Below are positions 414 through 62,618 of a stretch of DNA of 64,000 nt, piece after piece. The position numbers and the translations under genes were made by a program. This stretch comes from Candidatus Paraburkholderia kirkii. Lineage in GTDB: Bacteria; Pseudomonadota; Gammaproteobacteria; Burkholderiales; Burkholderiaceae. Under the pieces are notes generated by a model. That model made no database searches and had not been told where the DNA came from. It worked only from the letters and a program-made list of their open reading frames with translations. How positions within the stretch are numbered: position 1 is the first letter of the stretch; the number at the start of each line of letters is the position of its first letter. The stretch lies in the NCBI GenBank assembly GCA_001189345.1, contig LFKV01000029.1, forward strand, positions 1-64,000, in the 5' to 3' direction.

Positions 414-1445
414 TTAGGTTGGAGGATTTGCTTGCCGACGAAACTCGCGCGGCGAGCGGTATTTAAGGGCGCTGTGCGGGTGTGACTCGTTATCGTGGTC
501 GAACGCGATGGCCAGATTTTGCAGCGCCGTCCTGGCGTCGGGTTTCGGCATCCACGAAACGTAATCACGCTTTATCGTTTCGTAATCACGCTTTATCGTT
601 TTAACGAAGCTCTCGGCCATCCCGTTGCTTTGCGGACTTCTGACGGGTGTCGTTACTGGCTTCAGTCCGATTTTTCGAGAGAACTTCAATGTGTCATCGG
701 CAATGTAGCAGGAACCATTGTCGCTTAACCACTCGACTTCCCTTTCGGCCTTCAACACGCCGGTGAAGCGGTTCTCGACGGCTTGAAGCATGACGTCACG
801 CACCATATCGCCAGTGTAACCGCCTGTGCTCGCGGCCCAACTCATGGCTTCGCGGTCGCAACAGTCGAGTGCGAAGACGACACGCAATGGGACACCGGCA
901 TCGCAGCGGAATTCGAAGCCATCCGAGCACCAGCGCATGTTGCTGCTATCCACCGCGACCTTGCCGTCATGCCGACGCGTAGACGAGGCGTGCCGAGGGC
1001 GATGTTCAAGCAGCAGGCCGTGGCGACGCATCACGCGATACACGCGCTTTGCATTTACTCGCGGTTGAGCCAGCATGTCCCGGCTTCGCCTCAGCAACGC
1101 CCAAGCACCTCGGTATCCATACGTCGGCGCGTCGCCTAACAACTCATGAAGTTCGGCGACAAGCGCCGTGTCGTCGAGCACGGGCATCTTGCGCCGGTCG
1201 ACCCAGTCAGCCGGCCGCTTCGACTTGACTGCGAGATTCGAGCGCGACACCCCCAGGACTTATAGGCTCCCGTCCTGATAGAGCTTGCGCCAGCCGAAGA
1301 CTTGGTTGGCATTCACTTGATGTCGGCGAGCGACGCCAGAGACCGTTGTACCGGGCTCGAAAGTCTCGCGAACTATCGCTAGTTTCTCTTCAATTGAACG
1401 CCGGCGGCGCTGCTCCGGCTGGGTCAGAACTTCTAGAGGTTCCAC
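414..1445 (-). pseudogene. IS2-like transposase orfA/orfB, internally deleted
   Basis: The orfA part (1260-1445, 61 codons) holds the helix-turn-helix, with [11 protein letters not shown] as recognition helix. The orfB part (414-1250) holds the DDE catalytic domain: MRWCSDGFEF, LDCCDREA, EWLSDNGSCY and SPQSNGMAES. In IS2 the two genes overlap in different frames and orfA is about 120 residues. Here they lie in the same frame separated by one TAA, and the second half of orfA plus the start of orfB are missing, so an internal deletion of roughly 200 bp is inferred. A perfect 21-bp tandem duplication at 560-601 adds seven residues (TIKRDYE repeated) just after the catalytic Glu region. Loss of the OrfAB fusion makes activity unlikely. 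Confidence 0.85.
560..601. repeat. 21-bp perfect tandem duplication inside IS2-like orfB
   Basis: Two adjacent identical 21-bp copies (560-580 and 581-601), beginning CGTAATCACG. The duplication is in frame and repeats seven residues around KRDY. IS2 transposase has this motif once, so the second copy looks recently gained. Confidence 0.95.
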
Positions 1446-1524
1446 GTTGTGACTAGGCTTAAAACATAGGCAGAAGACTACCTCAAAATTTAAGCGTCAC
1501 CGCATGTCCGGCTTTTGCGGGGGC

Positions 1525-2340
1525 GCGATGGATGCCGAAACCTTCGGCCTTGCGCGCGCGTCAGCTCGAAGCGAAGATTCTCGAACTCGGCGCGGAGAAC
1601 GTCGCGGCATTCATCGGCGAGCCGTTTCAGGGCGCGGGCGGCGTGATCTTTCCGCCCCCGGCTTACTGGCCCGAAATCGAGCGCATCTGCCGCAGACACG
1701 ACGTGCTCCTGATCGCCGACGAAGTCATCGGCGGATTCGGACGCGTCGGCGAATGGTTCGCGCATCGGCACTTCGGCTTCGAGCCGGACCTCATCACGAT
1801 GGCCAAGGGCCTCACGAGCGGTTATGTGCCGATGGGCGCGGTGGCGCTGTCGGATTCCATCGCGGATGCGATCGTCGATGGCGGCGAGTCCAATCACGGC
1901 TTTACTTATTCCGGGCATTCGGTCGCGGCCGCCGTCGCCGTCGCCGTCGCCAATCTGAAGCTGTTGCGCGACGAGGGCATCGTCGCGCGCGTAAAGGACG
2001 ATGCGGGACCGTATTTCCAGATGCGCTTGCGCGAGGCGCTCGGCGAGCATCCGGTTGTCGGAGAGATCGCGGGCGCGGGGCTCGTCGCGGGCATCCAGCT
2101 TGCCGAGGATCGCGCGACGCACAAGCGCTTCGCCAACGGCGACGAAATCGGCACGCTGTGCCGCGACTTCTGCTTCGCCGGCGATCTCGTGATGCGCGCG
2201 AGCCACGATCGCATGCTGCTGTCGCCGCCGCTCGTCGTCACGCATGGCGAGATCGACGAGATCGTGGACAAGGCCAGGGCCGCGATCGACGCCACCGCGC
2301 GCGCGATCAGGAACGCCGCCTGGCGAAGTATTCCGCGGCC
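1525..2340 (+). pseudogene. Class III aminotransferase, C-terminal remnant
   Basis: C-terminal half of a PLP-dependent class III aminotransferase, resembling the putrescine/omega-amino acid:pyruvate group. Visible landmarks are EPFQGAGGVIFPP, the PLP-binding Asp in LLIADEVIGGFGR, the Schiff-base Lys in MAKGLTSGYVPMG, and the TYSGHSVAAA segment of the family. The N-terminal half (about 200 of about 460 residues) is gone, replaced by the IS2-like end. The normal stop is also missing: the frame runs on past the terminator palindrome to 2608, into antisense of the next gene. A GCCGTC triplet repeat at about 1930-1950 lengthens an Ala-Val run. Substrate specificity cannot be read. Confidence 0.85.
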
Positions 2341-2373
2341 ACTCGTCCGGCGAAGCAGCGGCATCGAGCAGAC

Positions 2374-2399
2374 GAATCACGCCGCATGCGGCGTGATTC
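2374..2399. terminator. 26-bp perfect palindrome between convergent genes
   Basis: GAATCACGCCGCA and its exact inverted complement form a 26-bp palindrome, placed between the ends of the convergent aminotransferase and TetR genes. It could act as a bidirectional terminator. There is no U-tract on either side, so the role is inferred from position and symmetry. Confidence 0.5.
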
Positions 2400-2403
2400 C
2401 ATT

Positions 2404-3648: not shown

Positions 3649-3662
3649 CTCAAGGAGCAGAC

Positions 3663-4388: not shown

Positions 4389-4476
4389 CACCCATATCGA
4401 CCTTCTGAATCATGAAACAATGGCGGGGGGTGAATTGCACCGATTGCACTCGACCGACAGGAGACAGGAGCTTTCA

Positions 4477-8867: not shown

Positions 8868-9808
8868 TCAACCGCCCTTCGCGCCCTGCGTGTTGACGAC
8901 GTACAGCGAATAGAGCCCGTGGCTCGTCGCCATGAACAGACGATTGCGGTGCCGCCCGCCGAAGCACACGTTCGCGCAGCGCTCCGGCAAGTCGATATGG
9001 CCGATCGCCTTGCCCTGCGGCGTGAACACGCGCACGCCGTCGAGCTCCGCATCGCCCATGCCCCAGCCGCACCACAGATTGCCGTGCACATCGACGCGGA
9101 AGCCGTCCGGCGTACCCGCTCCCGCGTCGATCACGAGACGCGGTTCGCCGAGCCTACGGCCGCCGTCGAGCACGTCGAACGCGTAGATCCTGCGCGGCGT
9201 CGAGCGCGACTCGACCACGTACAGCACCGCTTCGTCCGGCGAGAACGCGAGACCGTTGGGGCCGACGAAGTCGTCGATCATCACCGTGATCTCGCCGCTG
9301 CGGCCATCGACCCGATACACGCACGGCTTCAGTTGCGGCTCCTGCCTTTCGCCTTCATAGAAGCCGTCGATGCCGAAGGTCGGATCCGTGAACCAGATCG
9401 AGCCGTCCGACTTCACGACCACGTCGTTCGGCGAATTGAGCGGCTTGCCGCCGTAGCCGTCGGCGAGCACGGTGACGGCGCCATCGTACTCGGTGCGCGT
9501 CACGCGGCGCGTCAGATGCTCGCAGGTCACGAAACGGCCTTCGCGGTCGCGCGTATTGCCGTTCGCGTTGTTCGACGGCTTGCGAAATACGCCGATCTGG
9601 CCGCTTTGCTCGTCCCAGCGCAGGATGCGATCGTTCGGGATGTCGCTCACAGGAGATAGCGGCCGTCGCCGAACCAGACCGGCCCTTCGGACCAGCACGC
9701 CCCCTGATAAAGGCACTCCACCGATGCCGACGCGATGCGCAACGCGTTGAAGCGCGGATCCAGCACGCGCACGGCGGGATCGGGATAGCGGCGCGAGTCG
9801 CTTGTTAT
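8868..9808 (-). pseudogene. SMP-30/gluconolactonase-like beta-propeller, frameshifted
   Basis: Calcium-dependent lactonase-type propeller (SMP-30/LRE family), usually hydrolysing sugar lactones. Motifs are NSPNDVVVKSDGSIWFTDPT, DDFVGPNGLAFSPDE and the C-terminal CANVCFGG. The N-terminal strand GACWSEGPVWFGDGRYLLWS is in a different frame; the shift is near 9650. The expected start codon after AGGAGACGAAAGAAC reads ATA rather than ATG, so the start may also be lost. No sugar genes adjoin it. Confident family call. Confidence 0.85.
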
Positions 9809-9862
9809 GTTCTTTCGTCTCCTGTTGTCCTGTTGAAGAGCGGACGCGCGCGTCCGTCGTGA

Positions 9863-11074
9863 TTACCTCGAATGCGCCGCGGCCGGCATCGCTTCCAGAG
9901 CGGCAACCGACTTCTGCATGCCGTCGAAAATGCGCTCCGCCACCCAAAGCGGGAAATCCCCGGGCAATTGCGCCGCGACCGCGTCGATGACCGCCGGCGT
10001 GCGCCCGATGATCCGTTGAATGATCGGCTCCGCGCTTTCTCCGAAGCCGCATTTCAGCGCCATCGCGTTGAAGTGCCGCCGCTGAATGTCCCGAAACCCC
10101 GTAGTGCCGGCTCCCGGCCGGGACGGCCATCGCGAGTTTGGCCCTGTACCACGACCACTGATTGGCGCCGTCGCCTTCCACCGGCCAGATCGACATGACG
10201 TCATAAAGCGGCGTGAGGCGGTATTGTCTGCCTCTCAGCAGATGGATGCTGAAGTTCTTTGCGTGACCGTCCGGCGCGGCAAGTAACCAGAACAGAATTT
10301 GCGTGCTCACCAGCGTTTCAATGTCGCGGCGCGCATCGCTCGATTGCTGCAGATCGCGCGCGAGATCCAGCACGCCCGGACCGCCGTCCTGCTCGTAATT
10401 CCTGTGCGGAGGCAATCCATTCACCTGGCAGAAGTCTTCCTGCGGCAGGCGAAGAATCCATTCGCCGCCCGGATGCATGCGCCGGTCGAAACGTTCCACG
10501 ACGAGCACGCGCTGCGCGCCGAACCGCGCGAGCTCCACGTTCGCAACCGGCACGCCGAACGCCCGCAGCAGGCGCATGCACAGCCATTCGTTCTCGACCG
10601 ACGTCGTGAGATCGGCGCGGCGGTTGCCCACGAGCCCCAGCGGCAGCTTGAGGATGTGGGTCGTCGGCGTCGCGCCCTGCGGCTTGAGCCATCGCCCTTC
10701 ATGCCGCAACAGCGCGGTCTTCTCCTGCGCGCCGGCGAGCGAGATGCGGAAGTCGTCTTCGTCGTCCGCGCCGAAGGGCGCGCCGCCGGCGATCTGGCTC
10801 AGCAGACTCTCCACGTCTGCGTCGCCGAGCGGCGTGCCCTCGATGCTTTCGACGCCTTCGGGCGACTCGTTCTCGCCGAGCAGCTGCACGGCGCCGACGC
10901 AGTCGCGACCGATGGCCTGCAGCAAGTCGAAGGCGTCGAGACTGCCGGTCTGGAAACGTTGCGCGATGCGACGCCGGATCGGCTCGCTGTCGGGGAGAAG
11001 ATTGTCGAAGTAATGACGACCGCGTCGCCTTTCAGCGGCGCGCCGTCGAGCCGGATCGGCAGCGACATGGAAAG
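9863..11074 (-). pseudogene. hipA: HipA-family Ser/Thr kinase, 5'-truncated and frameshifted
   Basis: Toxin kinase of HipBA-type systems, which phosphorylates a translation component and induces dormancy. Visible parts: FDNLLPDSEPIRRRIAQRF near the N-terminus, the ISLAGAQEKTALL loop, the catalytic PDGHAKNFS segment and the metal-binding Asp in PLYDVMSIWP. Frameshifts lie near 11015 and 10100. The first about 40-50 residues and any hipB antitoxin gene are missing; at 11074 the frame continues into an MFS transporter fragment. With the shifts no full kinase can be made. Confidence 0.88.
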
Positions 11075-11434
11075 CGGGCGCGGGTCGGGAAACAGATCGG
11101 GAATCGACGCGAACGCGGTCCCGACCATCATGCCGACGCCGACGCCCTGCAGGCCGCGCGCGAGCACGAGGAACAGCATGCCCGGCGCGAGGCCGCACAG
11201 CACCGACGCCACCGTGAACATGATCACCGCCGCGATCACGAAGCGCTTGCGCCCGAAATAATCGCCGAGCTGCCCGAACACCGGCACCGTCACGACCGAC
11301 GCGAGCAGATAGGCGCTCGCGATCCACGCGTAGAACTCGAAGCCGTGCAGCTCCACGACGATCGACGGCAGCGCGGTGCTGACCACCGTCTGGTCGAGCG
11401 CCACCAGCATGTTGACGAGGCCGATGCCGAGCAT
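11075..11434 (-). pseudogene. MFS (DHA2/EmrB-type) transporter, N-terminal stub
   Basis: First 120 residues of a drug:proton antiporter of the 14-helix DHA2 group. It shows membrane helix 1 with LVALDQTVVSTALP (motif typical of the family), helix 2, the loop GQLGDYFGRKRFV (motif A) and helix 4 GLQGVGVGMMVG. After PDLFPDPRP the frame enters hipA sequence, so a deletion removed the remaining helices. A natural upstream start is not visible: the frame continues back to a TAA near 11540 with no ATG. Certainly nonfunctional. Confidence 0.88.
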
Positions 11435-13189: not shown

Positions 13190-14497
13190 ATGAATCGCGA
13201 ACCTTCCCTGCGTCACCCGCTGCTGGAGCGCCTCGCCGAGGCCCGCCGCGTCACCGACGAACTCTTCGACGTCGTCAGGCCCGAGCACCTCTACGATAGG
13301 CCGATCGCCGAGCGGCATCGCATCGTCTTCTATATCGGGCATCTCGAAGCCTTCGACCGCAATCTTTTCGACAAGCGGCTCTTCGACATGCCGAGCTCCA
13401 ATCCCGAATACGACCGCCTCTTTGCCTTCGGCATCGATCCGGTGGACGGCGACTTGCCGACCGATCAGCCTGCCGACTGGCCCTCACTCGAACACGTGCG
13501 CGCCTACAAGGACGAAGTCCGTGCCGATATCGACGGGCGCTTCGATCCGATCAGGATCGCGGTGGCGCCCGTTTCCGCCGACGAATCGCCCGCGCAGCTG
13601 CTCGAAGTCGCCATCGAGCATCGGCTGATGCATGCGGAGACGCTCACCTACATGCTGCATCAATTACCGGTCGACCGGAAAAAGGCGCCGGCCGATGCCC
13701 GTTCGGAGCGGGAGTCGGCTCGCGCGCTCGAACATGAAACGGTGCGCGTGCCGGCGGGCAGCACGACGCTCGGCCTCGCGCGCGAAAGCGGCCTGTTCGG
13801 CTGGGACAATGAGTTCGGCGCGGAGCGCGTCGAGGTGCCCGCGTTCGAGATCGACCGCTACATGGTGACGAACGGCGACTACCTGCGCTTCATCGAGGCG
13901 GGCGGCTACTGGAACCGCGCGCACTGGAGCGACGCCGACTGGACGTGGAAGGAGGAACAGCGCATCGTGCATCCGGCCTTCTGGATTCCCGGCGACGGCG
14001 ACGCTGACGATCCGCGCGGCGGGTGGAAACTGCGCACGATGTTCGACGAGATTCCGCTACCGCCCGACTGGCCCGTCTATGTGAGCTACGCGGAAGCGAA
14101 CGCGTATGCGCGCTGGGCCGGCAAGTCGCTGCCGAGCGAAGCGCAATGGCAGCGCGCGGCATCGGGCGCGCCGCAGGTCGCCGAAGGCAATTTCGATTTC
14201 CGTCGTTGGGATCCGTCGCCGGTGCAGGCGCATCCGGAGAATCGCAGCGAGTTCGGCGTCGGAGGACAGTTCGGCAACGGCTGGGAATGGACGTCGACGA
14301 CCTTCGGGCCGCTGAACGGATTCGAGCCGTTTCCGTTCTATCTCGGCTATTCGGCCAACTTCTTCGATGGCAAGCATTTCGTCATCAAGGGTGGCTCGCC
14401 GCGCACCGCCGCGTGCATGCTGCGGCCCAGTTTCCGCAACTGGTTCCAGGGGCATTATCAATATGTTTATGCGGGGTTTCGCTGCGTAAGCGCCTGA
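13190..14497 (+). CDS. EgtB-like non-haem iron sulfoxide synthase (DinB + SUMF1)
   Basis: Relative of EgtB, which joins a thiol to trimethylhistidine using oxygen in ergothioneine synthesis. Residues about 10-165 form a DinB-like helical domain with the expected iron ligands: His51 in YIGHLEAF, and His144 and His148 in the H-x3-H-x-E pattern EHRLMHAE. Residues about 185-435 form a formylglycine-generating-enzyme-like (SUMF1) domain (YMVTNGDYLRFIEAGGYW, GNGWEWTSTTFGP, KGGSPRTAACMLRPSFRNW). Length 435 and intact. The ATG is used because CACGGAGA lies ahead. No egtD methyltransferase is adjacent, so whether it makes ergothioneine, selenoneine or another thiohistidine is open. Confidence 0.85.
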   Translation: MNREPSLRHPLLERLAEARRVTDELFDVVRPEHLYDRPIAERHRIVFYIGHLEAFDRNLFDKRLFDMPSSNPEYDRLFAFGIDPVDGDLPTDQPADWPSLEHVRAYKDEVRADIDGRFDPIRIAVAPVSADESPAQLLEVAIEHRLMHAETLTYMLHQLPVDRKKAPADARSERESARALEHETVRVPAGSTTLGLARESGLFGWDNEFGAERVEVPAFEIDRYMVTNGDYLRFIEAGGYWNRAHWSDADWTWKEEQRIVHPAFWIPGDGDADDPRGGWKLRTMFDEIPLPPDWPVYVSYAEANAYARWAGKSLPSEAQWQRAASGAPQVAEGNFDFRRWDPSPVQAHPENRSEFGVGGQFGNGWEWTSTTFGPLNGFEPFPFYLGYSANFFDGKHFVIKGGSPRTAACMLRPSFRNWFQGHYQYVYAGFRCVSA

Positions 14498-14596: not shown

Positions 14597-15714
14597 TCAC
14601 TGCGCGGCCGCTTCCTCGTATCGAGACATTTGATAATCGCTGTCGCCGAAGAGCGGATCGAACATCGTCAGGCGCTTGAAGTAGTCACCCACGTCCAGTT
14701 CGTCGGTCATTCCCATTCCGCCGTGGAGTTGCACGGCTTGCTGGCCGACATAGCGTCCCGCTTTCGCGACCGTCACCTTCGCCGCCGCGATCCTGCGCGT
14801 GCGCTCCCGAGGATCGGGTTCGTCGAGCGCCTGCGCAGCGACATACGCCATCGACAGACCGAGCTCCTTCTGGATCAGCATGTCTGCCATGCGGTGCTGC
14901 AGTGCCTGGAAGGCCCCGAGCGGTTTGCCGAACTGCTGGCGCGTGCGCAGATACTCGGCCGTGATCTCGATCAGCCGCTCCATCGCTCCGGACGCCTCGG
15001 CACAGAGCGCGGCGATGCCATGATCGAAGCCATGCTGAAGCGCGCTCAGGCCGCCTTCGATCAACCCGTCGGCCGCGACCTTCACACCGTCCAGCGCGAC
15101 ATCGGCTGCGCGGAGCCCGTCCATGGTCGGGTAGCCTGTCGTCGTCACGCCTTTTGCGTTGCGCGGCACCATGAACAGGCCGATCTCGCTGCCGCCCGCG
15201 ATGCGCGCCGTAACGATCAGCGCATCAGCCACTTCGCCGTGCCACACGAGCGACTTCCGGCCATCCGGGACGTAGCCTTCGCCGTTTCGTTCCGCGACCG
15301 CCTTCACTGCCTCCGGGCGGTAGCGTGAATCACGTCGAGGTACGCAACCGAGACGATCTTCTCGCTGCCGGCGAGCGCCGGCAGCCATTGCTGCTTCTGC
15401 GCATCGCTGGCGTAGCGGCCGATTACCGCGGCCGCGACCACCGCCGACGAGATGACGGGCTCCAGCACGAGCCCCCGGCCGAGCTCGCGCTGCACGACGA
15501 GCCGGCTCGCCGGCCCTTCGCCGAAGCCGCCATGATCGGCGTCGATCGTGAGCCCGAGCACGCCCAATTCGCCGAGCGTCGACCAGACCGCGCGATCGAA
15601 CGCCCCGCCTTCGCGCGAGCGTCTGCGACGGCGGTCGAATGCATATTCGGTATCCACGAACCGGCGCAGGCTGTCGGCCATCATCTGCTGCTCTTCGCTG
15701 TAGGTAAAGTCCAT
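14597..15714 (-). pseudogene. pimD: Acyl-CoA dehydrogenase, pimeloyl-CoA dehydrogenase small-subunit type
   Basis: Flavoprotein that oxidises acyl-CoA to enoyl-CoA. Resembles the small subunit of two-subunit pimeloyl-CoA dehydrogenases. It starts MDFTYSEEQQMMADSLRRFV, has GGLSALQHGFDHGIAALCAE and ends in the FAD-binding AVQLHGGMGMTDELDVGDYF. One frameshift near 15330 separates residues 1-128 from the rest. The partner large-subunit gene ends nine bases upstream, so they formed an operon. Symbol is by similarity and position. Confidence 0.8.
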
Positions 15715-15723
15715 GCCCGTTCC

Positions 15724-16931
15724 TTAGAAGCCGAGGATCATTTTCGAGATGATGTTCTTTTGCACTTCCGTCGCACCGCCGAAGATCGAGATTTTGCGCA
15801 TATCGAAGTACGCCGAAGCGGCGGGCGACGCCCAGTCCGGACCGCTGACGGGCTGCGTGGCGCCGTCGAGCAGCCAGTCCGGCGAATACGGCCAGCTGTG
15901 CGGTCCCGCCACCTCCTGTTGCAGCCGCGATATCCTGCTGGATCTCGGAGGCGCGGATCTTCAGAATTGACGCTTCCGGACCGGGTCCGCTGCCGGCCCC
16001 CTGCGTGGCGACGCGCAGCAGCATCTCCAGCGCCATCACGTCCATCTCGATGCGCGCGAGTTTGTCGCGCATCCGCGCATCGTCGATCATCACGCCGCCT
16101 TTTCCGTCCGGCGCGATCGAAGCGTAGTGCTTGAGCTGCCGCAGCTCACGGTAGCAATGGCCGATGCCCGCAATACTCGTGCGCTCGTGTCCGAGCAGGT
16201 ATTTCGCATAGGTCCAGCCCTTGTTTTCTTCGCTGACCAGATTTTCGACCGGCACCTCGACGTCTTCGAGCCATGTCTCGTTTACGTCGTGACCGCCGTC
16301 GAGCGTCACGATCGGGCGCACGCTCACGCCGAGCGTCCTCATGTCGATCAGCAGCAGCGAGATGCCCTCCTGCGGCTTCACGTCGGGATCGGTGCGCACC
16401 AGGCAGAAGATCCAGTCCGGCGAAGATCCAGTCCGGCGAAATGCGCCATCGTGGTCCACGTCTTCTGGCCGTTCACGACGTACTTGTCGCCCTTCTTCAC
16501 CGCCCGCGCCTTCAGCGACGCCAGGTCGCTGCCCGCGCCCGGCTTGGAATAGCCCTGACACCAGAAATCCTCGACGCTCGGAATGCGCGGCAGAAACCGC
16601 GCCTGCATCTGCGGGGATGCATACTTCATCAGCACCGGCCCGATCATCAGCAGGCCGAAGGGCAGCGGGCGCGGCGCGCCAAGCTTGAACGCCTCGACTT
16701 CGAAGATCAGCCGCTGCAGCGGGCTCCAGCCCGTGCCGCCGTGCTCTTTCGGCCACGCCGGCGCACCCCAGCCGTGCGCGTTCAGGATTCGGTGCCAGCG
16801 CACGTAATCCTCCTTCTCGACGCGACGGTGGCCCAGCACCTTGTCTCGTTATCGTTCGGCCAATTCGCGTCCACGAACGCGCGCACTTCGTCGTGGAAAG
16901 CCTGTTCGTCCGCGGTATAACGCAAGTCCAT
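15724..16931 (-). pseudogene. pimC: Acyl-CoA dehydrogenase, pimeloyl-CoA dehydrogenase large-subunit type
   Basis: Larger partner of the preceding subunit. Starts MDLRYTADEQAFHDEVRAFV; then [58 protein letters not shown], and finally ISIFGGATEVQKNIISKMI, the typical large-subunit ending. Frameshifts are at about 16840, at 16406-16437 and near 15925. The middle one is caused by a perfect 16-bp tandem duplication. At least three lesions, so long dead. Together with the CoA transferase and other dehydrogenases nearby it belonged to a beta-oxidation-like route. Confidence 0.82.
16406..16437. repeat. 16-bp perfect tandem duplication causing a frameshift
   Basis: Two adjacent copies of GAAGATCCAGTCCGGC (16406-16421, 16422-16437). 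Removing one copy restores the acyl-CoA dehydrogenase frame between TWTTMAHFAGLD and the downstream IFCLVRTDPD segment, which shows the single-copy state was ancestral. Confidence 0.95.
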
Positions 16932-17403
16932 CCCGATGTCCTCCTCGATGTGCGCGCTGCGCGCGGCCAGGGTCGCGCGCACCTCTGTTTCGTTTCCAGT
17001 CCTTCTCTGCGACGTCGACTGCGCCCCTGCGATGCAATACCCGGGAGCGCGCGGCTGTCGGCAATGAGTGTGTGGGGACCCTTGCGCGCGACGCAACTTG
17101 TATTCGACGAACGCGGCATTCGGCGTCCGCGAACACGCGCCCTTCCTGCAAGGATCATCGGACGTCGCGGTTCTGAAAGCACGAACGCGGCCGTCGCAAC
17201 TTGCGATTTGAACCCGGACACCTGCCTTGTTACATTGAATTGCCGAGGCCGGCGTGCTGGCCGGCCTCACCTCGAACGACACCGGGATTCGCAGCACTGC
17301 CGTTCTTTGCTCGACATTCCGGCCCGGGAATCGATCGGTTCTACCAAGCGATCGCCGAACATCCATCAAGCGGAGGAAGACTTATCCAAGCTGAAAAACC
17401 CCG
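16932..17403. other. Intergenic region with one strong hairpin, no gene seen
   Basis: No supported gene in 472 bases between the divergent acyl-CoA dehydrogenase and nitronate monooxygenase-like genes; open frames here are Arg-rich and lack ribosome sites. A perfect nine-base stem GAGGCCGGC-GTGCTG-GCCGGCCTC at 17245-17268 has no T-tract and could be a transcript structure or operator. Promoters for both flanking genes should lie here. Confidence 0.5.
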
Positions 17404-31466: not shown

Positions 31467-32540
31467 GTACCGCGAACCGGTGAGGCAGGGCGGCGTTGTT
31501 GCGCCGTCATGCCTCAACCGGAACCTGAACTGGGAATCGTCCAATGGAGTCTCAAGGGATACTGCCCTAACCTGTCGGTCTCGGAACCCTCTGGGACAGG
31601 CCGCCGGCGCGATTGCGTCGCCGAACCCCGCTCCAACGCACGATCCCCATGCAAGAAGTCCGCAACGCCGACGCATCCCTGGCCGCATATGCCTTCGCGG
31701 AAACGCTCTATTGCCGCGGACGGTTCGCCGACGCGCTCGCGCTTCTCGAGCGTTCTTCTTTCACCCGCACGCAAGCGCCGATGCTCAACCTCGCGGCTGC
31801 GTGCTGCCTCACGCTCGAGCGTGTCGCCGAAGCCGAAGCCGAAGCGTATTATCGCCGGTCGATCGACATCCGCCCGGATTTCGTCGAAGCGCATAACAAC
31901 CTCGGCATCGTCCTGAGCCGAAGCGAGCGCCTTCGGGAGGCGGAGGCGGCCTACCGGCATGTGCTGGAAATCCGGCCGAATCATGCTTCCGCGCATCCTA
32001 ATCTCGGACGCATTCTCGAGACGCGTGGCGTGCTCGATGCGGCGCGGGCCACGCATCTGCGGGCGCTCGAATGCAATCCGGACGACGCGAGCGTCCACAC
32101 CAATCTCGGCGCGTGCTGCATGCAGCTTGATCGCTTCGGCGAAGCGGAGGCGGCGTTCCGGCGCGCCGCATCGCTCGTGCCGAACGATGCGCGTGCCCGT
32201 TTCAATCTCGGCACGGCACTGAAGAAGCTTGCCCGCTTTGAGGAAACCGAGGCCGCCTATCGGTAGGCGCTGGCGCTGTATCCCGGGCACGTGGACCCAC
32301 GCCTCAAGCACGACGCTCGAATCCGTGCCCGCCGCGCTGCCTTATCTGCGGGTGCCGCGCGAGCGGGCGCTCGCCTGGCGAGACCGGCTGCCCGCGGGTG
32401 GCTTCAAGGTCGGTCTGGTGTGGGCCGGCGATCCGCGCCATCACACGGCGCATCTGCACGCCGTGGACCGGCTCCGCTCGCTTTCGGCGCAGACCTATTT
32501 GCCGATTCTGCGCGTGCCGGGCGCGACCTTCGTCAGCTTA

Positions 32541-33790: not shown

Positions 33791-34579
33791 TCAGTGCCCG
33801 CGCCGCCCGAGCAGGCTTGCGCCGTAGACCAGCGCGGCGAGCATCGTGATCCAGAAGCTCGTCGGCCAGTCGGTGAAAAAGGCGAGCGTGAGACCAACCC
33901 AGGCTTGCCCGAGCGCGAACGCGGCAGCGAGGACCAATCCGGACGACAGCCGCGTCGTCACGTTCTGCGCCGCGGCCGCGGGCCCCACCATCAGCGCGAA
34001 CACGAGCAGCACGCCGACGATCTGCGTGCCCGCCGCGACCGCGAGCGCGGTGATCGCGAGAAACAACACGGAAACGAGCCGCAGCGACACGCCCTTGGCT
34101 TCGGCAAGCTCCGGCTGTAACGACGCGAACATCAACGGCCGCATGATGAACGCGAGCGCGGCAAGGCTCACGATCGCGAGTCCCGCCAGCACGACGAGCG
34201 TCTCGTGACTCACGCCGAGCACGTTGCCGAACAGAAGCGCCGTTGTTTGCGTGGCATAGGCGGTGAAGAAGTGCAGAAACAGCAGGCCGAAACCGAGCGA
34301 TAACGAAAGAATCACGCCGATCGCCACGTCGCGGCCCGACAGGCGCTCGCCGAGCGCGCCCATGCCGATGCCCGCCGCGAGCGTGAAGCCGACCATTCCC
34401 CAGAGCGGCGGAATGCCGAGCAGCACCGCGCCGGTCGCGCCGGTGAAGCCGACGTGCGAGAGCGCGTGGCCCGCGAAGGTCTGCCCGCGCATCACGAGAA
34501 AGTACCCGACGATTCCCGACAGCACCGCGACGATCCCCGACGCCGCGAATGCATTCACCATGAAGTCGTATTCGAACAT
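33791..34579 (-). CDS. znuB: Zinc ABC transporter permease
   Basis: Inner-membrane permease of the ZnuABC high-affinity zinc importer, 262 residues with about eight hydrophobic helices (AFAASGIVAVLSGIVGYFLV, LVVLAGLAIVSLAALAFIM, TQIVGVLLVFALMVGPAAAA). The conserved AGHALSHVGFTGATGA loop and the EAKGVSLRL segment are present. Starts eight bases after znuC. Intact. Confidence 0.92.
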   Translation of the reverse strand: MFEYDFMVNAFAASGIVAVLSGIVGYFLVMRGQTFAGHALSHVGFTGATGAVLLGIPPLWGMVGFTLAAGIGMGALGERLSGRDVAIGVILSLSLGFGLLFLHFFTAYATQTTALLFGNVLGVSHETLVVLAGLAIVSLAALAFIMRPLMFASLQPELAEAKGVSLRLVSVLFLAITALAVAAGTQIVGVLLVFALMVGPAAAAQNVTTRLSSGLVLAAAFALGQAWVGLTLAFFTDWPTSFWITMLAALVYGASLLGRRGH

Positions 34580-37875: not shown

Positions 37876-39244
37876 ATGAAACGCACTCAACGCATCGTTC
37901 GGGCACAACCGCGCGCGCGGCGCCGTCAAGGCGCTTTCGGCCGCGCTCGCCGCTGCCGCGCTCGTGCCGCTATCGGGACATGCGGCGACGACCATTACCA
38001 CCATTACCATCGCCACGCTCAACAACCCCGACATGATCGAGCTGAAGAAGCTCGAGCCGGCGTTCGAGAAGGCCAATCCGGACATCCAGCTGAAGTGGGT
38101 GATTCTCGAGGAGAACGTCCTGCGCCAGCGCGCGACGACGGACATCACCACCAACAGCGCCAGTTCGACGTGGTCACCATCGGCACGTATGAAGCGCCGC
38201 AGTGGGGCAAGCGCGGCTGGCTCTCGCCGATGACGGGCCTGCCCGCCAACTACGATCTCGACGACGTCGTGAAGACGGCGCGCGACGGCCTTTCGTACAA
38301 TGGCCAGCTCTACGCGCTGCCGTTCTACGTCGAAAGCTCGATGACGTATTACCGCAAGGACCTGTTCCAGGCCGCGGGCCTCAAGATGCCCGACCAGCCG
38401 ACCTACGATCAGATCAAGCAATTCGCCGACAAGCTTACCGACAAGTCCAAGGGCCAGTACGGCATCTGCCTGCGCGGCAAGGCCGGCTGGGGCGAGAACA
38501 TGGCGTACGTGTCGACAGACGTGAACACCTTCGGCGGCGAATGGTTCAACGAGAAGTGGCAGGCGCAACTCGACACGCCGGAATGGCACAAGGCCGTGAC
38601 CTTCTACTCGGATCTGCTGAAGAACGATGGCCCGCCGGGAGCGAGCTCGAACGGCTTCAACCAGAACCTTACGCTGATGTCCTCCGGCAAGTGCGCGATG
38701 TGGATCGACGCGACGGTCGCCGCGGGCATGCTCTACAACAAGTCGCAATCGTAGGTGTCGGACAAGATCGGCTTCGCGGCGGCACCCGTCGCCGTCACGC
38801 CGAAGGGCTCGCACTGGCTGTGGTCGTGGTCGCTCGCGATTCCGAAGACCTCGAAGCAGCAGGACGCCGCGAAGAAGTTCGCCGCTTGGGCAACGTCGAA
38901 GGAAGGAGTACATCGAGATGGTCGGCAAGGACGAGGGCTGGGCCTCGGTGCCGCCGGGCACGCGCAAGTCCACCTACGCGCGTCCCGAGTACAAGCAGGC
39001 CGCGCCGTTCGACGACTTCGTGCTGCAGGCGATCGAGACCGCGAACCCAAACGACGCGACGCTCAAGAAGGTGCCGTATAGCGGCATCCAGTTCGTCGGC
39101 ATTCCGGAGTTCCAGTCGTTCGGCACGGTAGTCGGCCAGTCGATCGCAGGCGTCGTGGCAGGTCAGACGAGCGTCGACAACGCGCTGAAGGCGGCCAATG
39201 CCGCAGCCGATCGCGCCGTCAAGCAAGTCGGTTATCAGAAGTAA
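37876..39244 (+). pseudogene. Sugar-alcohol ABC transporter binding protein, multiply broken
   Basis: Periplasmic binding protein of the sorbitol/mannitol (SmoE-like) type. Signal peptide region AVKALSAALAAAALVPLSGH, then ATLNNPDMIELKKLEPAFEK, FDVVTIGTYEAPQWGKRGWL, YGICLRGKAGWGENMAYVST, GSHWLWSWSLAIPKTSKQQD and the C-terminal VKQVGYQK. Lesions: frameshifts near 37920, 38160 and 38900, TAG at 38752-38754 (NKSQS[Q]VSDKIGF, apparent CAG ancestor), and a 9-bp tandem duplication at the mature N-terminus. Confidence 0.87.
37991..38008. repeat. 9-bp perfect tandem duplication
   Basis: ACCATTACC twice in a row, repeating Thr-Ile-Thr at the predicted mature N-terminus of the binding protein. In frame. 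Confidence 0.85.
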
Positions 39245-41117: not shown

Positions 41118-41847
41118 GTGAATCTCACTCCATCCACCGAGGCCAGACATCTCGAGGATCGCCTGATGATCTGCGACTGCGACGGCGTCCTGATCGACAG
41201 CGAGACCGTGGCGGCGCGCATACTCGTCACTGGGCTGCAGATGCTGTGGCCGGGCATCGACGTCGAGCCGGTCGTGATGCCACTGCTCGGCCTGCGCATC
41301 GAGGCGGTGCTGGCGAGCGCCGCCGACACGGTCGGCCGCACGCTGACGCACGAGCAGGTCGTCGCGATCCGCCGCGCCGTCGAAGCGGCGGCGATTCAGG
41401 CGCCGATGGTGCCGGGCATCGCCGAGGCGCTGGCGGCTGTGCCGTTCACCAAGGCGTGCGCGAGCAACAGTTTTCGCCATACGTTTTCGCCATACGTCGA
41501 TGCGGTGCTGCAGCGCACCGGCCTCGTGCGTTTTTTCGGCGAGCGTCGTTTCTGCGCGGACATGGTCGAGAACCCGAAGCCGGCGCCCGAGTGTATCTCG
41601 CCGCGGCGCGCGCGATGCGCCATCGATCCGCTGCGCTGCCTCGTCGTGGAGGACAAGCGTGACCGGCGTGACGGCGGCGACAGCGGCGGGCATGCCGGTG
41701 CTCGGCTTCATCGGCGGCGGGCACGCCACCGAAGGACAGGTCGGCGCGCTGGAGAAGGCGGGCGCGCAGGTCGTATTCGACGACATGACGCGACTGCCCG
41801 CGCTTGTCGAGCAATGGCTGCAGAACGCGACGTTTGAAATCAGATAG
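41118..41847 (+). pseudogene. HAD-family phosphatase of the sugar-alcohol operon, frameshifted
   Basis: Haloacid-dehalogenase phosphatase, probably dephosphorylating a sugar-phosphate side product. Nucleophile motif ICDCDGVLIDSE; PMVPGIAEALAAVPF; then ADMVENPKPAPE; the last motif VVED followed in another frame by SVTGVTAATAAGMPVLGFIG. Small indels between 41590 and 41660 move it through three frames. A 13-bp tandem duplication at 41471-41496 lies mid-gene; with one copy the two halves would be out of frame, so the duplication may have followed a one-base loss. Confidence 0.8.
41471..41496. repeat. 13-bp perfect tandem duplication
   Basis: TTTTCGCCATACG twice in a row inside the HAD phosphatase gene. 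It gives NSFRHTFSPYVDAV; without it the upstream and downstream parts would differ by one base in frame. Confidence 0.92.
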
Positions 41848-44532: not shown

Positions 44533-45120
44533 GTCAGCCTCCTGATTTGACCTGCGACTACCTGCGACTATTGGTTTCTTGGTTTCTTGCGGTGTGTTCG
44601 TCCTCGTATGCTTTCGATGCTTGTGGTGATTGCGTCGCGGGCCGCCGGAATGCGCGGGCGCGCGACGCCATTGAAGCAATATCCGGCGCGCATCGGAATT
44701 CGTGTATGGAAGTCGCTCTTTTTTTGGCGCTGTCGCTCAGCCGCGTGATGCCCGCGGCCGATCCCGCGGATCAAGCAAGCGGTGTGCCGAACGCCGCACG
44801 AGCGTGCGCGGCGGCCGTCGACGCGCCGCGCAGTGTTGCAGGCGCGCGACCTTTTGGCTTTCCCGCCGATCGCGTCGCTCGACAAGATGCCTGCGCGCAA
44901 TTTATAACTATAACCGTTAGGCCATGCCGCAGTGCGGCGAGGTGCGGCACAATAGAAACATGCGGTCCGGACACGCGTTCGCAAGCGGCATCCGCGCGCA
45001 TGCCTGGCCGCGTGTCGCTTGCGCTGCACTGCGGGATGCGGACGGCAATGGACCCGCGAAGCCCGCCCGGATAAGCGTTTCATCTGACCGAACAACCTGG
45101 AATCAGTCGGGAATCAGAAC
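44533..45120. other. Intergenic region, no gene seen; two small tandem duplications
   Basis: 588 bases between divergent glgC and pdxY. Open frames are Arg/Ala-rich and unsupported. Next to glgC are two tandem duplications: CCTGCGACTA at 44551-44570 and TTGGTTTC at 44571-44586. An AT-rich stretch near 44900-44920 (TTTATAACTATAACCG) may hold the pdxY promoter. Confidence 0.5.
44551..44586. repeat. Adjacent 10-bp and 8-bp tandem duplications
   Basis: CCTGCGACTA twice (44551-44570), directly followed by TTGGTTTC twice (44571-44586). Both perfect, both in the glgC leader. Confidence 0.88.
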
Positions 45121-51133: not shown

Positions 51134-51868
51134 ATGGCAGGAAACCTGGAGCGGGCGTTGTCGATCATCGAGCTGCTGGCGAAGAACGGCGGGCGCATGC
51201 AGCTCGCCACGATCGCCGACACGCTCAACATTCCGCGCAGCGGCACGCACCGCCTGCTCGCGATGCTGATCGACGAGGGCTATGTCCGGCAGGACGAGGA
51301 TCACGGCGAGTACATGCTCGCGCTGAAGCTCGTGTCGCTCGCGCTCATCTATCTCTCGACGGGCGGCGTGCTCGACGTGTCGCAGCTCGACGTGTCGCAG
51401 CCGGTGCTCGACCGGCTCGCGGCGCAGTCGGGGGAGCTGGCGCGGCTGGGCGTCGTAAGCGCTGGCGCTCGTCTCGAAGCAGGGCGGGCTGGGCAAGCCG
51501 GGTTCGGGCGGCCCGAAGGCGCCGAAGACGATCCAGCAGTTTCTCGCCGATCTGCACGCGGCCCGCAAGCGCGGCTACGGCATCGCGAGCGAGACCTACG
51601 AGGCCGGCATGACGTCGATGGCCGCGCGATCCATCATCCGGTGACGGGCGTCGTGGTGGGCGTGGTGAGCCTCGCCGGGCCGACGAGCCGCTTGCCCGAG
51701 GCGCGTCTCGACGAGCTTGCACCCGCGCTGTTCGAAGCGGCATCGGATATGGGCGCGGCGACGTTGAGTTCGCCGTATTTCAAGCGGTCGGTCGCGAAGG
51801 CGGAGGGGGCGGTGAGGTTTCGGCGGCGGCTGAAAAGGCGGTGGGGAAAGGGAAGGCGAACAACGTGA
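51134..51868 (+). pseudogene. IclR-family regulator 3, internally deleted
   Basis: Winged helix is sound (ATIADTLNIPRSGTHRLLAM), followed by EYMLALKLVSLALIYLSTGG. After GELARLGVV about 45 residues of the effector domain are missing; the sequence resumes in another frame with ALALVSKQGGLGKPGSGGPK and a further shift near 51625 leads to HPVTGVVVGVVSLAGPTSRL. A 15-bp tandem duplication at 51371-51400 adds five residues. Likely the regulator of the upstream NIPSNAP/TIM-barrel genes. Confidence 0.82.
51371..51400. repeat. 15-bp perfect tandem duplication
   Basis: CTCGACGTGTCGCAG twice in a row, in frame, repeating Leu-Asp-Val-Ser-Gln in the IclR protein. Confidence 0.95.
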
Positions 51869-57537: not shown

Positions 57538-57897
57538 GTGGCCAATCTGGATCTGGACAATCCGTTTCTCGAGGCGCTCGGCGCGACATTCACCGAATGG
57601 CGCGCGGGCTATGCCGAGTTCACCATGCCGATCGGGCGCGACGCCGGCGCACGGCTTCACGCTCTCGTTCACGGTGAATTATCTCGACCGCGGCATCGGC
57701 GACAGGGTGGTCGCGAAGGGCTTTCTCGAACGCCAGGGCCGCTCGGTGTATTTCGCGCACGGCGAGGCGTGGGTCGACGATCGCGTGATGATCGCGAGCG
57801 CGTGATGATCGCGAGCGCGTGATGATCGCGAGCGCGTGATGATCGCGAGCGCGTGATGATCGCGAGCGCGCAGGGCAAGTTCAAGTACGCACACTGA
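57538..57897 (+). pseudogene. PaaI-type thioesterase, catalytic deletion and repeat expansion
   Basis: Hotdog-fold thioesterase. Starts VANLDLDNPFLEALGATFTE with GTG after AAAGGGAGC, reaches FTMPIGRDA, then jumps to PAHGFTLSFTVNYLDRGIGD in another frame. About 40 residues holding the catalytic G-G-x4-L-x-D helix are missing. The end should read RVMIASAQGKFKYAH, which is found at 57853-57897, but a 17-bp unit is repeated five times (57785-57869) and places TGA after the first RVMIASA. So it is inactivated twice. Confidence 0.85.
57785..57869. repeat. Five perfect copies of a 17-bp tandem repeat
   Basis: GTGATGATCGCGAGCGC five times without a mismatch (85 bp). The unit derives from the codons for Val-Met-Ile-Ala-Ser of the thioesterase; since 17 is not a multiple of three, each added copy shifts frame and introduces GCG TGA. 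Homogeneity of all copies points to recent expansion. Confidence 0.97.
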
Positions 57898-60077: not shown

Positions 60078-60128
60078 GGCAGCAGTTTACGACTGTCTGC
60101 TGCACGCGGATCATCAGGTAACTGACGT

Positions 60129-60476
60129 TTACAAAGCGCTGCGCGGGCGTGCTGCCTCGATCGGTTCGCGCCAGTCAAACCCTTCGAGAAGCAGCGCCAG
60201 TTGAGCCGTTGTCAGCGCCACAACACCAGTGTCAGCACGTGGCCATGCAAAACGTCCTTTCTCAAGGCGCTTTGCAAACGGACATAGGCCGCCATCGCTC
60301 CAGTACAACGCCTTCATAAGGTCACCACGGCGCCCTCTGAAGATAAAAACCTGGCCACCGTACGGATCCTTCTCAAGCACTGTCTGCACCTTCGCTGCAA
60401 GCGCATTAAAGCCGGATCACATGTCAGTGACGCCTGCGGCGATCCAGATCCGCGTATTTGCAGGCAGGCCGATCAT
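60129..60476 (-). pseudogene. IS66 accessory protein TnpB, nonsense mutation
   Basis: About 115 codons: MIGLPANTRIWIAAGVTDM, then TGA at 60417-60419 where family members have Arg (CGA to TGA fits), then SGFNALAAKVQTVLEKDPYG and GQVFIFRGRRGDLMKALYWS, CPFAKRLEKGRFAWP. Otherwise colinear. Start overlaps the tnpA stop as TGATG. Confidence 0.87.
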
Positions 60477-60912
60477 CAGAGAAGCCGCTCGAGTACCAGG
60501 CGCAAGATCGTCGCGTCGGGCGTGCCTTCTATCCGGACGGAAGTATTGCCGTGCTGAAGCTCAATCCTGCCGCTCGTAGTAACTGGAGCGGCCTGCACAA
60601 CTTCGTCGAATCCGGCAGATGGTCAGTTGCCCGATCGGGCTGAACATCGACAACAACAGGCAACATGGCCTGCGTCTGAGCATCTTCGACCAGCAGGCCC
60701 TGCGCGTACAGTTTGCGCCACGCCCATACCTGGTTGGCATTGACGTTGTTGTCGCGGGCGACCCGAGCGACCGAGGCTCCTGGTTCAAATGTCTGCTCGA
60801 CGACCGTTCGTTTCCATTCCAACGGATGCCGCCGGTTCTGGCGCTTGGCCGGCAATTCGACTGTCTGAGACACTGTGTCCATTCTCCGCAGTTCGTGGAC
60901 ACTGTCGGTCAA
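60476..60912 (-). pseudogene. IS66 accessory protein TnpA, frameshifted
   Basis: Helix-turn-helix protein: RRHPLEWKRTVVEQTFEPGA, RVARDNNVNANQVWAWRKLY. A frameshift near 60605 precedes the C-terminal SGRIELQHGNTSVRIEGTPD and ILRLVLERLL. All else fits an IS66 TnpA. Confidence 0.85.
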
Positions 60913-60982
60913 TCGCGTCCGTTGCGGCTGATGATTGCATCTTCTACCTAGAACGAGACAACGGTACAGATCGAGCGCTTAC

Positions 60983-62618
60983 CTTGATCCATTCGACCGT
61001 CATCGCCTTCGGACGGCTGATGTTGCCGAAGAGGATAAGCGGCTTCACGCAGCGCGAGCCGTACGACTGCACCCAGTCTAACTGGCTGAACGCATAGCCG
61101 TCGAGTTGTTCGCCGAAATATTCGACCATGTCGTTGCGTTCGGCTTCGCCGTGCACCAGCACGTCCAGACCCAGCGCCTTTTGCTCCTTCACGGCACGCG
61201 TGATTTCCTTTTCCATCGCCGCCTTGTAGCCGGCCGCATCGAGCGCTCCGCTCTTGAACTGGCTACGCGCGTGGCGGATCTCGCCGGTCTGCGGGAAAGA
61301 GCCGATGGTCGTCGTCGGGAACGCGGGCAGGCCGAGAATGATCGCCTGTTTCTTCGCACGCTGTTCATAAGCGCTTTGACGCTTGCCGAGCGAGGCATCG
61401 AGCTTTGCGAGGGCTGCCTTGACCGTCGGGATTGTTCACGCGCGGCGAGTTGCGACGGCTTTGGATCGCGGCGGCGTTCGCGGCGAGCGCGTCGCCGACC
61501 GATTCGCGGCCGTTGTTCAACGCACCCGCGAGGACGCTCAGCTCATCGAGCTTTTGCAGCGCGAAGGCGAGCCACGACTTGATTTCGGCATCGAGCTTGA
61601 CTTCGCTGTTCAGATCGACCGGAACGTGCAAGAGAGAGCACGACGGCGCGATCCACAGACGCTTGCCGAGTTGCTCGTGAAGCGGTTCGAGCCATTCGAG
61701 CGTCGCGTTCAGGTCGGTCTTCCAGATATTGCGGCCATTGATCGCGCCGACCGACAGCACGGACGTATCCGGCAATTGTGCGACGACATCCTTGATTTCA
61801 TCGCGGGCGTTGATTGCGTCGATATGCAGGCCATCGACCGGCAGACGGCAGGCGAGCGAGAGGTTTTCCTGCAACTGACCGAAGTAGGTGGCCAGGAGCA
61901 GGCGCACGCGCCGCGCCGATAGCGCGTCAGTCACGAAGGCGTCGCGCCACTTTGCATTGAGTTCGGTCACGAGCGCGGCTCGTCGATCTGCACCCAGATC
62001 TGCACCCAGTCCACGCCTTGCGCCGCGAAATGATCGAGCAATGCCGCATAGACCGGCAGCAGTTCGAGCTTGTCCGAATCGTCCTTGGCCTTGCCGAGCC
62101 AGAGATAGGTGACCGGGCCGATGATCACGGGCTTGACGTTCACGCCGACCGCGCGCGCCTCTCCGACCTGTTCGATGAGACGCGAGGTATCGAGCTTGAA
62201 CTGCGAGTTCGCATCGAACTCGGGGACGATGTAGTGGTAATTGGTGTCGAACCATTTGGTCATCTCGCCGGCGACGCCGCCACAGCAGGCTGCATGCTCT
62301 TCGGCGCTCGCGGCGGAGCGGCCGCGTGCGACACGGAAGTAGTTGTCCAGTGCATCGCCATGGAAATCGCGGACACGCTCCGGCAGATTGCCGAGCGTGA
62401 AGCTCATTCATGTCGAGCACCTGGTCATAGAACGCGAAGTCGCCCACGGGAACCTGATCCAGGCGCGCCTGATCCTTCCAGTAGCGCTCGCGCAACCGGG
62501 CGGCGGCGGCCTTGAGGCCTTCACGCGAAGACTCGTTCTTCCAGTACTTCTCGAGTGCGAATTTCAGCTCGCGCTTTGCGCCGATGCGCGGAAAACCCAG
62601 GTTGTGTGTCGTGACCAT
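60983..62618 (-). pseudogene. metE: Cobalamin-independent methionine synthase, 3'-truncated
   Basis: Transfers methyl from methyltetrahydrofolate polyglutamate to homocysteine. N-terminal domain: [60 protein letters not shown]; linker; C-terminal domain beginning [40 protein letters not shown], ending at [13 protein letters not shown]66 removes the last about 200-250 residues with the zinc and homocysteine site. Frameshifts near 62405, 61975 and 61430. A 12-bp tandem duplication (61985-62008) repeats Trp-Val-Gln-Ile. Divergent from metR. Confidence 0.92.
61985..62008. repeat. 12-bp perfect tandem duplication in metE
   Basis: GATCTGCACCCA twice in a row, in frame; the protein reads [11 protein letters not shown] where MetE has WVQIDEP. 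Confidence 0.95.

What the first reader, a model, noticed from the sequence alone, without database searches (positions are those of the whole stretch)
560..62008. A genome-wide signature of perfect 8-21 bp tandem duplications
At least nine sites carry a short sequence immediately duplicated without mismatch: 560-601 (21 bp), 16406-16437 (16), 37991-38008 (9), 41471-41496 (13), 44551-44570 (10), 44571-44586 (8), 51371-51400 (15), 57785-57869 (17, five copies), 61985-62008 (12). Eight of the nine lie in broken genes or their leaders, several in or next to conserved motifs that exist once in the family. They are unrelated in sequence, so this is a mutational process (slippage, nick-gap repair or loss of a repair function), not a mobile repeat. 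Such a spectrum is not a commonly described feature of genome erosion.
Basis: partly seen in the sequence, partly recalled or inferred. Interest (0 to 1): 0.7.

Follow-up and report, generated by a model that had tools for sequence, protein, structure and literature searches.

The report
Short DNA doublings in decaying genome
A bacterium that is losing its genes carries many small stretches of DNA copied twice in a row; they are real and recent, but they look mostly like ordinary mutations left standing because the broken genes no longer matter, apart from a hint about how the doubling happens.

Summary
All nine repeats are present. The window belongs to a 3.91-Mb Caballeronia-group genome; its nearest held relative, C. 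ptereochthonis, has 7.7 Mb. At the eight chromosomal sites the relatives that align hold one copy, so the duplications are derived. The 21-bp site lies in an IS3 transposase and recurs in 8 of 11 sampled IS copies covering it: one mobile event. The 8- and 9-bp repeats are near chance frequency.

Exact duplications of 12 bp or more: 20 in 463 kb here, 13 in 1,409 kb of four large-genome relatives (P=1e-5); in noncoding DNA alone 2.6-fold, P=0.09. Small indels rise too: 1-bp ones 66 to 13. MutS, MutL, RecJ and XseA frames are open and full-size. So relaxed selection explains this better than repair loss.

One feature remains: duplication ends show only chance homology (24 here, 35 in small-genome relatives), while deletions show excess. 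The contrast is significant pooled (P=0.003), not for this genome alone (P=0.08). It hints at fill-in of staggered breaks, although no Ku was found here.

The parts
560..601 (-). 21-bp (7-codon, in-frame) duplication inside an IS3-family transposase ORF (414-1250, -); IS-borne
   Evidence: Pfam rve/HTH_21; doubled in 8 of 11 sampled IS copies covering the site; the Caballeronia sp. Sq4a IS aligns with a 21-base gap here
16406..16440 (.). 16-bp duplication (3 bp extra) in ORF 14597-17221 (-), whose C-terminal part matches acyl-CoA dehydrogenase
37991..38009 (.). 9-bp duplication in a gene with other lesions
   Evidence: 9-base gap in G055, 12-base gap in G054 and G001; period 9 is near chance frequency
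41470..41497 (.). 13-bp duplication, net +12 (one base fewer than the unit), in a gene with other frameshifts
   Evidence: 12-base gap in all three relatives; lesions
44550..44589 (.). two abutting duplications, 10 bp and 8 bp (A-A-B-B from ancestral A-B), intergenic
   Evidence: one 18-base gap in G055, G054 and G001
51370..51401 (.). 15-bp duplication in a gene with other lesions
   Evidence: 15-base gap in G055, G054 and G001; five frameshifting indels
57782..57870 (.). five copies of a 17-bp unit in a gene with other lesions
   Evidence: single copy in G055, G054 and G001; G054 net +68 = 4 x 17
61985..62009 (-). 12-bp duplication, net +11, in a broken metE-like gene (Meth_synt_1)
   Evidence: single copy in G055 and G054; Pfam; other lesions
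4456..4470 (.).
   Evidence: +7 against G055 and G054
13990..14003 (.).
   Evidence: +6 against G055 and G054
31826..31845 (.).
   Evidence: +6 against G055 and G001
44903..44914 (.).
   Evidence: +6 against all three relatives

Best explanation
The repeats are independent, lineage-specific short insertions (about 6-22 bp) that copy the neighbouring sequence. They stayed because much of this 3.9-Mb genome evolves without purifying selection after its lineage shrank from a larger Caballeronia ancestor. One of them was captured in an IS3 element and multiplied with it. Shown: derived state, spread over the sampled genome, rise of small indels together with duplications, open full-size frames for four mismatch-repair and single-strand-exonuclease genes, chance-level junction homology. 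Inferred: host restriction with drift as the cause; and formation by copying of staggered ends (two nearby nicks on opposite strands, both overhangs filled in, ends rejoined) rather than by slippage between pre-existing repeats.
For: Single copies in the aligned relatives at all eight chromosomal sites; of the 12 non-IS repeats of 10 bp or more in window, L039 and L045 that have an aligned relative, 12 of 12 are single-copy in G055 or, for 16406, in six other relatives. 20 exact duplications of 12 bp or more in 463 kb against 13 in 1,409 kb of four large-genome relatives. On 71.7 kb of three-way alignment, own against G055 branch: substitutions 2228 to 1714, 1-bp indels 66 to 13. By my reading 12 of 15 polarised own-branch insertions of 5 bp or more are (near-)exact copies of their neighbour. 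Of 15 derived duplications of 8 bp or more that I listed, 8 lie in genes with other lesions, 5 between genes, 2 in lesion-free genes (a 9-bp in-frame one and an 18-bp one overlapping a gene end). Small-genome relatives pool to 30 in 452 kb. MutS, MutL, RecJ, XseA frames open. Extra homology at duplications of 11 bp or more: 0/1/2/3/4+ = 12/6/3/1/2 against 12.8/6.9/2.8/1.0/0.5 expected (per-base match set at 0.27); small-genome relatives 18/12/3/2/0 against 18.7/10.1/4.1/1.5/0.7. Deletions: 6 of 17 polarised have 5 bp or more of homology (two of the six are contractions of existing repeats) against 1.3% by chance.
Against: Noncoding density differs little from large-genome relatives (8 in 117 kb against 6 in 231 kb, P=0.087), which supports relaxed selection but also means that most of the contrast rests on called coding DNA; G054's noncoding value (10.1 per 100 kb) exceeds this genome's 6.8. 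Avoidance of intact genes is not significant in the aligned sample (2 of 15 in 24% of bases, P=0.55). In a wider, unpolarised set only 9 of 50 insertion-like gaps of 6 bp or more were exact tandem copies as aligned; alignment placement hides some, but 'most insertions are duplications' rests on my reading of 15. Several small-genome relatives have higher noncoding densities (G044 27.5, G065 24.2, G042 16.1 per 100 kb), so a modest mutational increase there is not excluded; others are low (G047 0, G051 0, G071 6.1). The contrast in homology between duplications and deletions is not significant for this genome alone once contractions are dropped (P=0.085; wider set P=0.19), only pooled (P=0.003). 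Overhang fill-in duplications in mammals need Ku80 (PMC5730883 and PMC8355091, passages), and no Ku match was found in this genome.
Confidence: 0.7

Rival explanations
1. Loss of a repair function (mismatch repair, single-strand exonucleases or another) gives this lineage a duplication-specific mutator spectrum.
For: 4.7-fold higher density of exact duplications of 12 bp or more than in large-genome relatives; no Ku match here; duplications 9-18 against none on the G055 branch.
Against: MutS, MutL, RecJ, XseA frames open and full-size. Substitutions 1.3-fold and 1-bp indels fivefold up; no significant duplication-specific rise (P=0.07 to 0.35 by strictness). G042 and G071, with an open Ku frame, also carry duplications. 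Not tested: polA, recG, radA, exoI, sbcCD, ligA.
Confidence: 0.1
2. Replication slippage between short direct repeats made the duplications.
For: Slippage is the classical bacterial mechanism (recalled) and the deletions here carry direct repeats; the five-copy 17-bp array probably grew by slippage once doubled (inference).
Against: Junction homology of the duplications equals chance in two sets (24 and 35), multi-copy arrays left out (1 and 4). They differ from deletions at 4 bp or more when pooled (2 of 59 against 5 of 15 with contractions dropped, P=0.003), but not significantly here alone (2 of 24, P=0.085).
Confidence: 0.15
3. Target-site duplications left when inserted IS elements were lost.
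For: IS3- and IS630-type sequences are present.
Against: Unit lengths spread over 10-22 bp with no fixed size, and copies abut exactly without remnant; IS3 and IS630 make short fixed duplications (recalled).
Confidence: 0.02
4. Assembly artefact.
For: Draft assembly of 48 contigs; raw reads not available.
Against: Units are shorter than usual reads (recalled); sizes vary; G055 and G054, also drafts (about 120 and 80 contigs), show 0 and 8 repeats of 12 bp or more in 448 and 312 kb; separately assembled small-genome relatives show 30 in 452 kb.
Confidence: 0.03

Closest known systems
[quoted passage not shown]
   Same: Small insertions commonly copy the adjacent sequence.
   Different: Eukaryote; seen only as cited in passages of PMC5730883.
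Patch-mediated double-strand-break duplications in rice (Vaughn & Bennetzen 2014)
   Same: Natural insertions that are tandem duplications, attributed to offset nicks on opposite strands.
   Different: Plant; I saw only the title and two papers' descriptions (passages). Insertions there range over 10-1000 bp (PMC7407515 passage); here non-IS exact repeats end at 22 bp in a scan to 1500 bp.
Ku-dependent small tandem duplications at breaks with overhangs in mammalian cells (PMC5730883, PMC8355091)
   Same: Small duplications explained by fill-in of complementary overhangs; those made by the microhomology route differ in showing more junction homology.
   Different: Needs Ku80 and, for 3' overhangs, CST and Pol alpha-primase (passages); no Ku match in this genome.
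Pseudogene decay in Sodalis glossinidius (PMC3091646)
   Same: Most pseudogenes broken by frameshifts or stops, IS-rich genome.
   Different: The passages I saw do not describe a class of tandem duplications.

Membership tests
Neutral indel spectrum of an eroding genome | Small indels rise together with duplications relative to substitutions on the eroding branch | tested here: met
   1-bp indels 66 against 13, 2-bp 20 against 4, substitutions 2228 against 1714 (ambiguous events left out)
Neutral indel spectrum of an eroding genome | Density in unconstrained DNA similar to that of large-genome relatives | tested here: inconclusive
   noncoding 6.8 against 2.6 per 100 kb, P=0.087
Neutral indel spectrum of an eroding genome | Duplications avoid intact genes | tested here: inconclusive
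   2 of 15 in lesion-free genes, 24% of bases, P=0.55
Mismatch-repair-deficient mutator | mutS or mutL lost or broken | tested here: not met
   MutS_I and MutL_C in open frames of 920 and 688 aa
Single-strand-exonuclease-deficient mutator | recJ or xseA lost or broken | tested here: not met
   RecJ_OB and Exonuc_VII_L in open frames of 572 and 504 aa
Slippage between direct repeats | Excess microhomology at junctions | tested here: not met
   duplications equal chance; excess for deletions
Staggered-break fill-in and end joining | Duplications without excess junction microhomology | tested here: met
   two sets
Staggered-break fill-in and end joining | Ku-type end joining present | tested here: not met
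   no Ku match in G000 (97% complete); 55 of 58 genus genomes have one. The duplications may predate its loss (untested)
Staggered-break fill-in and end joining | Break intermediate or enzyme dependence shown | not testable with these tools
   needs experiment
Transposon target-site duplications | Fixed length and element or remnant between copies | tested here: not met
   units vary from 10 to 22 bp and abut exactly
VNTR / minisatellite | Three or more copies | tested here: not met
   1 of 28 own non-IS repeats of 10 bp or more has three or more copies, the 57782 array

The most novel reading that the evidence does not exclude
Bacteria of this genus make 10-22 bp tandem duplications by a microhomology-independent route (filling in and rejoining staggered ends) that is separate from the microhomology-guided route that makes their deletions, and that does not depend on Ku, since such repeats are abundant in lineages whose Ku gene is missing or broken (G000, G044, G065). 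The abutting A-A-B-B repeat at 44550-44589, and a similar adjacent pair at L039:12230 (net +23, 11 bp exact plus 12 bp imperfect), would be single events that captured a copy of the break site.
Probability: 0.25. Interest if true: 0.6.

Novelty: new member of a known kind. Interest (0 to 1): 0.33.

Why it matters
It shows that a signature read from raw sequence as an exotic mutator is largely what neutral decay would leave behind. It also points to a natural record of how a bacterium makes short insertions: several small-genome Caballeronia with large-genome neighbours should let one polarise many events genome-wide. If the split between homology-free duplications and homology-flanked deletions holds in a larger set, the bacterial origin of short tandem duplications becomes testable.

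Tried and rejected
Repair loss as cause: four repair genes have open full-size frames; only one domain of each was sought. Ku loss as the explanation of the excess: G042 and G071 have an open Ku frame and still carry duplications, so density does not follow Ku state. Target-site duplications: sizes vary, no remnants. Sharp length limit: non-IS exact repeats end at 22 bp in a scan to 1500 bp, but 24-25 events cannot exclude a plain decay. Recent burst: repeats with one mismatch are not in excess (15 in 463 kb against 71 in 1,409 kb), which fits young duplications but is not decisive. A small control (2 repeats of 12 bp or more in 609 kb) exaggerated the contrast and was replaced by a larger one (13 in 1,409 kb); likewise the first noncoding comparison at 10 bp or more. 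The first duplication-deletion test (P=0.02 own, 2e-4 pooled) counted contractions of existing repeats as deletions; without them P is 0.085 and 0.003. Papers: ten searches; from titles and abstract starts of the listed papers (lists capped) none reports homology-free short tandem duplications in eroding bacterial genomes; most subscription journals are not held. Passages only were read of PMC8355091, PMC5730883, PMC7407515 and PMC3091646.

Dropped rows: the IS-borne 21-bp repeats (7 in the sample, 1 in the window) were left out of the density counts from then on; ten tiny G055 contigs (L061-L070) and four tiny G065 contigs (L093-L096) were fetched but not counted, ambiguous events (28 of 1 bp among them) and 465 three-way-different substitution sites were left out, arrays of three or more copies were left out of the homology counts (1 own, 4 small-genome); G051 was kept in the pooled small-genome set; in the large-genome list one locus (L188) gives two overlapping rows. 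L045:4123 (14 bp) had no aligned relative. One search failed for a BLAST parameter and was rerun.
Full report
What was checked. The nine listed repeats were read directly from the window and all are exact as stated; Tandem Repeats Finder lists them too. Chance was set by 40 order-4 Markov simulations: mean 0.425 exact repeats of period 10 or more per 64 kb (maximum 2), 2.45 of period 8 and 0.93 of period 9. The window has 7, 3 and 3. The longer ones are therefore real; the 8- and 9-bp ones are not remarkable by number.

Where it comes from. The window is contig 29 of a genome of 3,914,712 bases in 48 contigs. In a search of 58 genomes of its genus with one 1.95-kb query the best match outside the own genome is G055 (7.7 Mb); the long aligned blocks are mostly 91-95% identical. 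G055 contig 60 and G054 contig 43 have the lengths of contigs of Caballeronia ptereochthonis LMG 29326 and of 'Burkholderia' (Caballeronia) peredens LMG 29314. That the window genome is a host-restricted symbiont is inference from size, pseudogenes and IS load. 42 of 53 gene pieces projected from G055 onto the window carry a frameshift or a stop in the pairwise alignment.

Are the duplications derived? Yes. With L039 and L045, 12 of 12 non-IS repeats of 10 bp or more that have an aligned relative are single-copy there. Two are not simple additions: at 41470 and 61985 the net gain is one base less than the unit. At 44550-44589 two units of 10 and 8 bp are doubled side by side, so that ancestral A-B became A-A-B-B; a single insertion of an 18-base copy of A-B at the A/B boundary would explain it (inference). 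At L039:12230 the net gain of 23 reads as an exact 11-bp and an imperfect 12-bp duplication next to each other (my reading). A 9-bp repeat at 34427 is ancestral.

The 21-bp site is different. It lies in an IS3-family transposase, in frame, adding seven residues. In 463 kb of the own genome 8 of the 11 IS copies that cover the site carry the doubled form; three more diverged ones (L033, L047, L044; 92-96% identical) gave no doubled match, and the short end motifs occur once in each. The IS of Caballeronia sp. Sq4a aligns with a 21-base gap. So one duplication in an IS copy was multiplied by transposition.

Density. Repeats of period 12 or more, IS-borne ones left out: own 20 in 463 kb; large-genome relatives 13 in 1,409 kb (G055 0 in 448, G054 8 in 312, G001 5 in 550, G012 0 in 100), ratio 4.7, P=1.3e-5. 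In noncoding DNA by my own simple gene caller: own 8 in 117 kb, those relatives 6 in 231 kb, ratio 2.6, P=0.087; G054 alone (10.1 per 100 kb) exceeds the own genome (6.8). In called coding DNA, which here includes pieces of broken genes: own 12 (6 not a multiple of three), those relatives 7 (1 not a multiple of three). Small-genome relatives: G044 16 in 130 kb, G065 7 in 60, G042 3 in 59, G066 with G056 2 in 50, G071 1 in 53, G051 1 in 72, G047 0 in 28; 30 in 452 kb together. The feature thus occurs in several small genomes of the genus but not in all samples. The smaller control first used (2 in 609 kb) overstated the contrast.

Is duplication specially raised? In 71.7 kb of three-way alignment (window, L039, L045) the own branch has 2228 substitutions, 66 one-base and 20 two-base indels; the G055 branch has 1714, 13 and 4; ambiguous events were left out. 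The own branch has 9 tandem insertions of 6 bp or more by the automatic rule and about 15-18 by my reading with ambiguous ones, the G055 branch none. Against 1-2 bp indels that is not significant (P=0.35, 0.12 and 0.07 for 9, 15 and 18). Of the 15 polarised insertions of 5 bp or more, 12 read as copies of their neighbour; in a wider, unpolarised set of 50 insertion-like gaps of 6 bp or more only 9 were exact tandem copies as aligned. Of 15 derived duplications of 8 bp or more that I listed, 8 lie in genes with independent lesions, 5 between genes and 2 in lesion-free genes (one in frame, one overlapping a gene end); avoidance of intact genes is not significant by itself (P=0.55).

Repair genes. 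MutS, MutL, RecJ and XseA domains lie in open frames of 920, 688, 572 and 504 aa. Ku is the one repair family of the five sought that is missing: 55 of 58 genus genomes have it; G000 (97% complete), G047 and the 60%-complete G003 do not. It is interrupted or fragmentary in G044, G056, G065 and G066, and open in G042 and G071; G051 has a partial match in an open frame. Duplication density does not follow Ku state.

Mechanism. If duplications arose by slippage, their ends should share more homology than chance. For 24 own repeats of 11 bp or more (the five-copy array left out) the extra homology is 0/1/2/3/4+ in 12/6/3/1/2, chance 12.8/6.9/2.8/1.0/0.5; for 35 in small-genome relatives 18/12/3/2/0, chance 18.7/10.1/4.1/1.5/0.7 (per-base match taken as 0.27). 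Not all of these were polarised. Own-branch deletions of 5 bp or more do show homology: 6 of 17 at 5 bp or more, chance 1.3%; two of the six are contractions of an existing repeat. In a wider, unpolarised set of 46 deletion-like gaps of 6 bp or more, 3 are contractions and 10 of the other 43 have 4 bp or more, against 3.3% by chance. Duplications against polarised deletions at 4 bp or more, contractions dropped: 2 of 24 against 5 of 15, P=0.085; pooled 2 of 59, P=0.003; against the wider set P=0.19 and 0.0035. So the chance-level homology of duplications is firm in two sets, and the contrast with deletions rests on pooling. Repeats in large-genome relatives are more often of the partial third-copy type (9 of 20 with 4 or more extra, against 3 of 25 own with the array; P=0.019). 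Mammalian cells make such duplications by filling in overhangs and Ku-dependent joining (PMC5730883 and PMC8355091, passages), and rice insertions were explained by offset nicks (PMC7407515, passage; the rice paper itself was not read). I infer the same type of event here. That no Ku is found today is against it, unless the events are older than the loss or another ligase joins the ends; neither was tested.

Verdict. The lasting point is the chance-level homology at the junctions.

Noticed in passing
window 44550-44589; also L039:12230-12270: Two abutting duplications (10 and 8 bp) meet exactly at one boundary, A-A-B-B from A-B; one insertion of an 18-base copy of the break site would explain it better than two independent events. 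L039 holds a similar adjacent pair (11 bp exact, 12 bp imperfect).
   Followed up: partly
window 370-1530; L031, L035, L037, L039, L041, L046: The IS3 copies that carry the in-frame 21-bp duplication are 98.9-99.9% identical to the window copy over the aligned parts, so the altered transposase may have kept moving.
   Followed up: partly
genome G000 (not in window): Ku (PF02735) is found in 55 of 58 genus genomes but not here, and is interrupted or fragmentary in four other small genomes.
   Followed up: partly
window 60975-62618: A metE-like gene (cobalamin-independent methionine synthase, N-terminal domain) carries many lesions; it is only about 80% identical to G055 while most long blocks of the window are 91-95%, so it may have a different history.
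   Followed up: no
window 14597-17221: This acyl-CoA-dehydrogenase-like ORF has no close match in G055 (71%) and is nearest to G022 (73%) among 41 genomes searched, so it was probably acquired or lost separately.
   Followed up: no
window 8868-11327: One 819-residue open frame joins HipA-type domains and an SMP-30/gluconolactonase domain, possibly a frame fused by decay.
   Followed up: no
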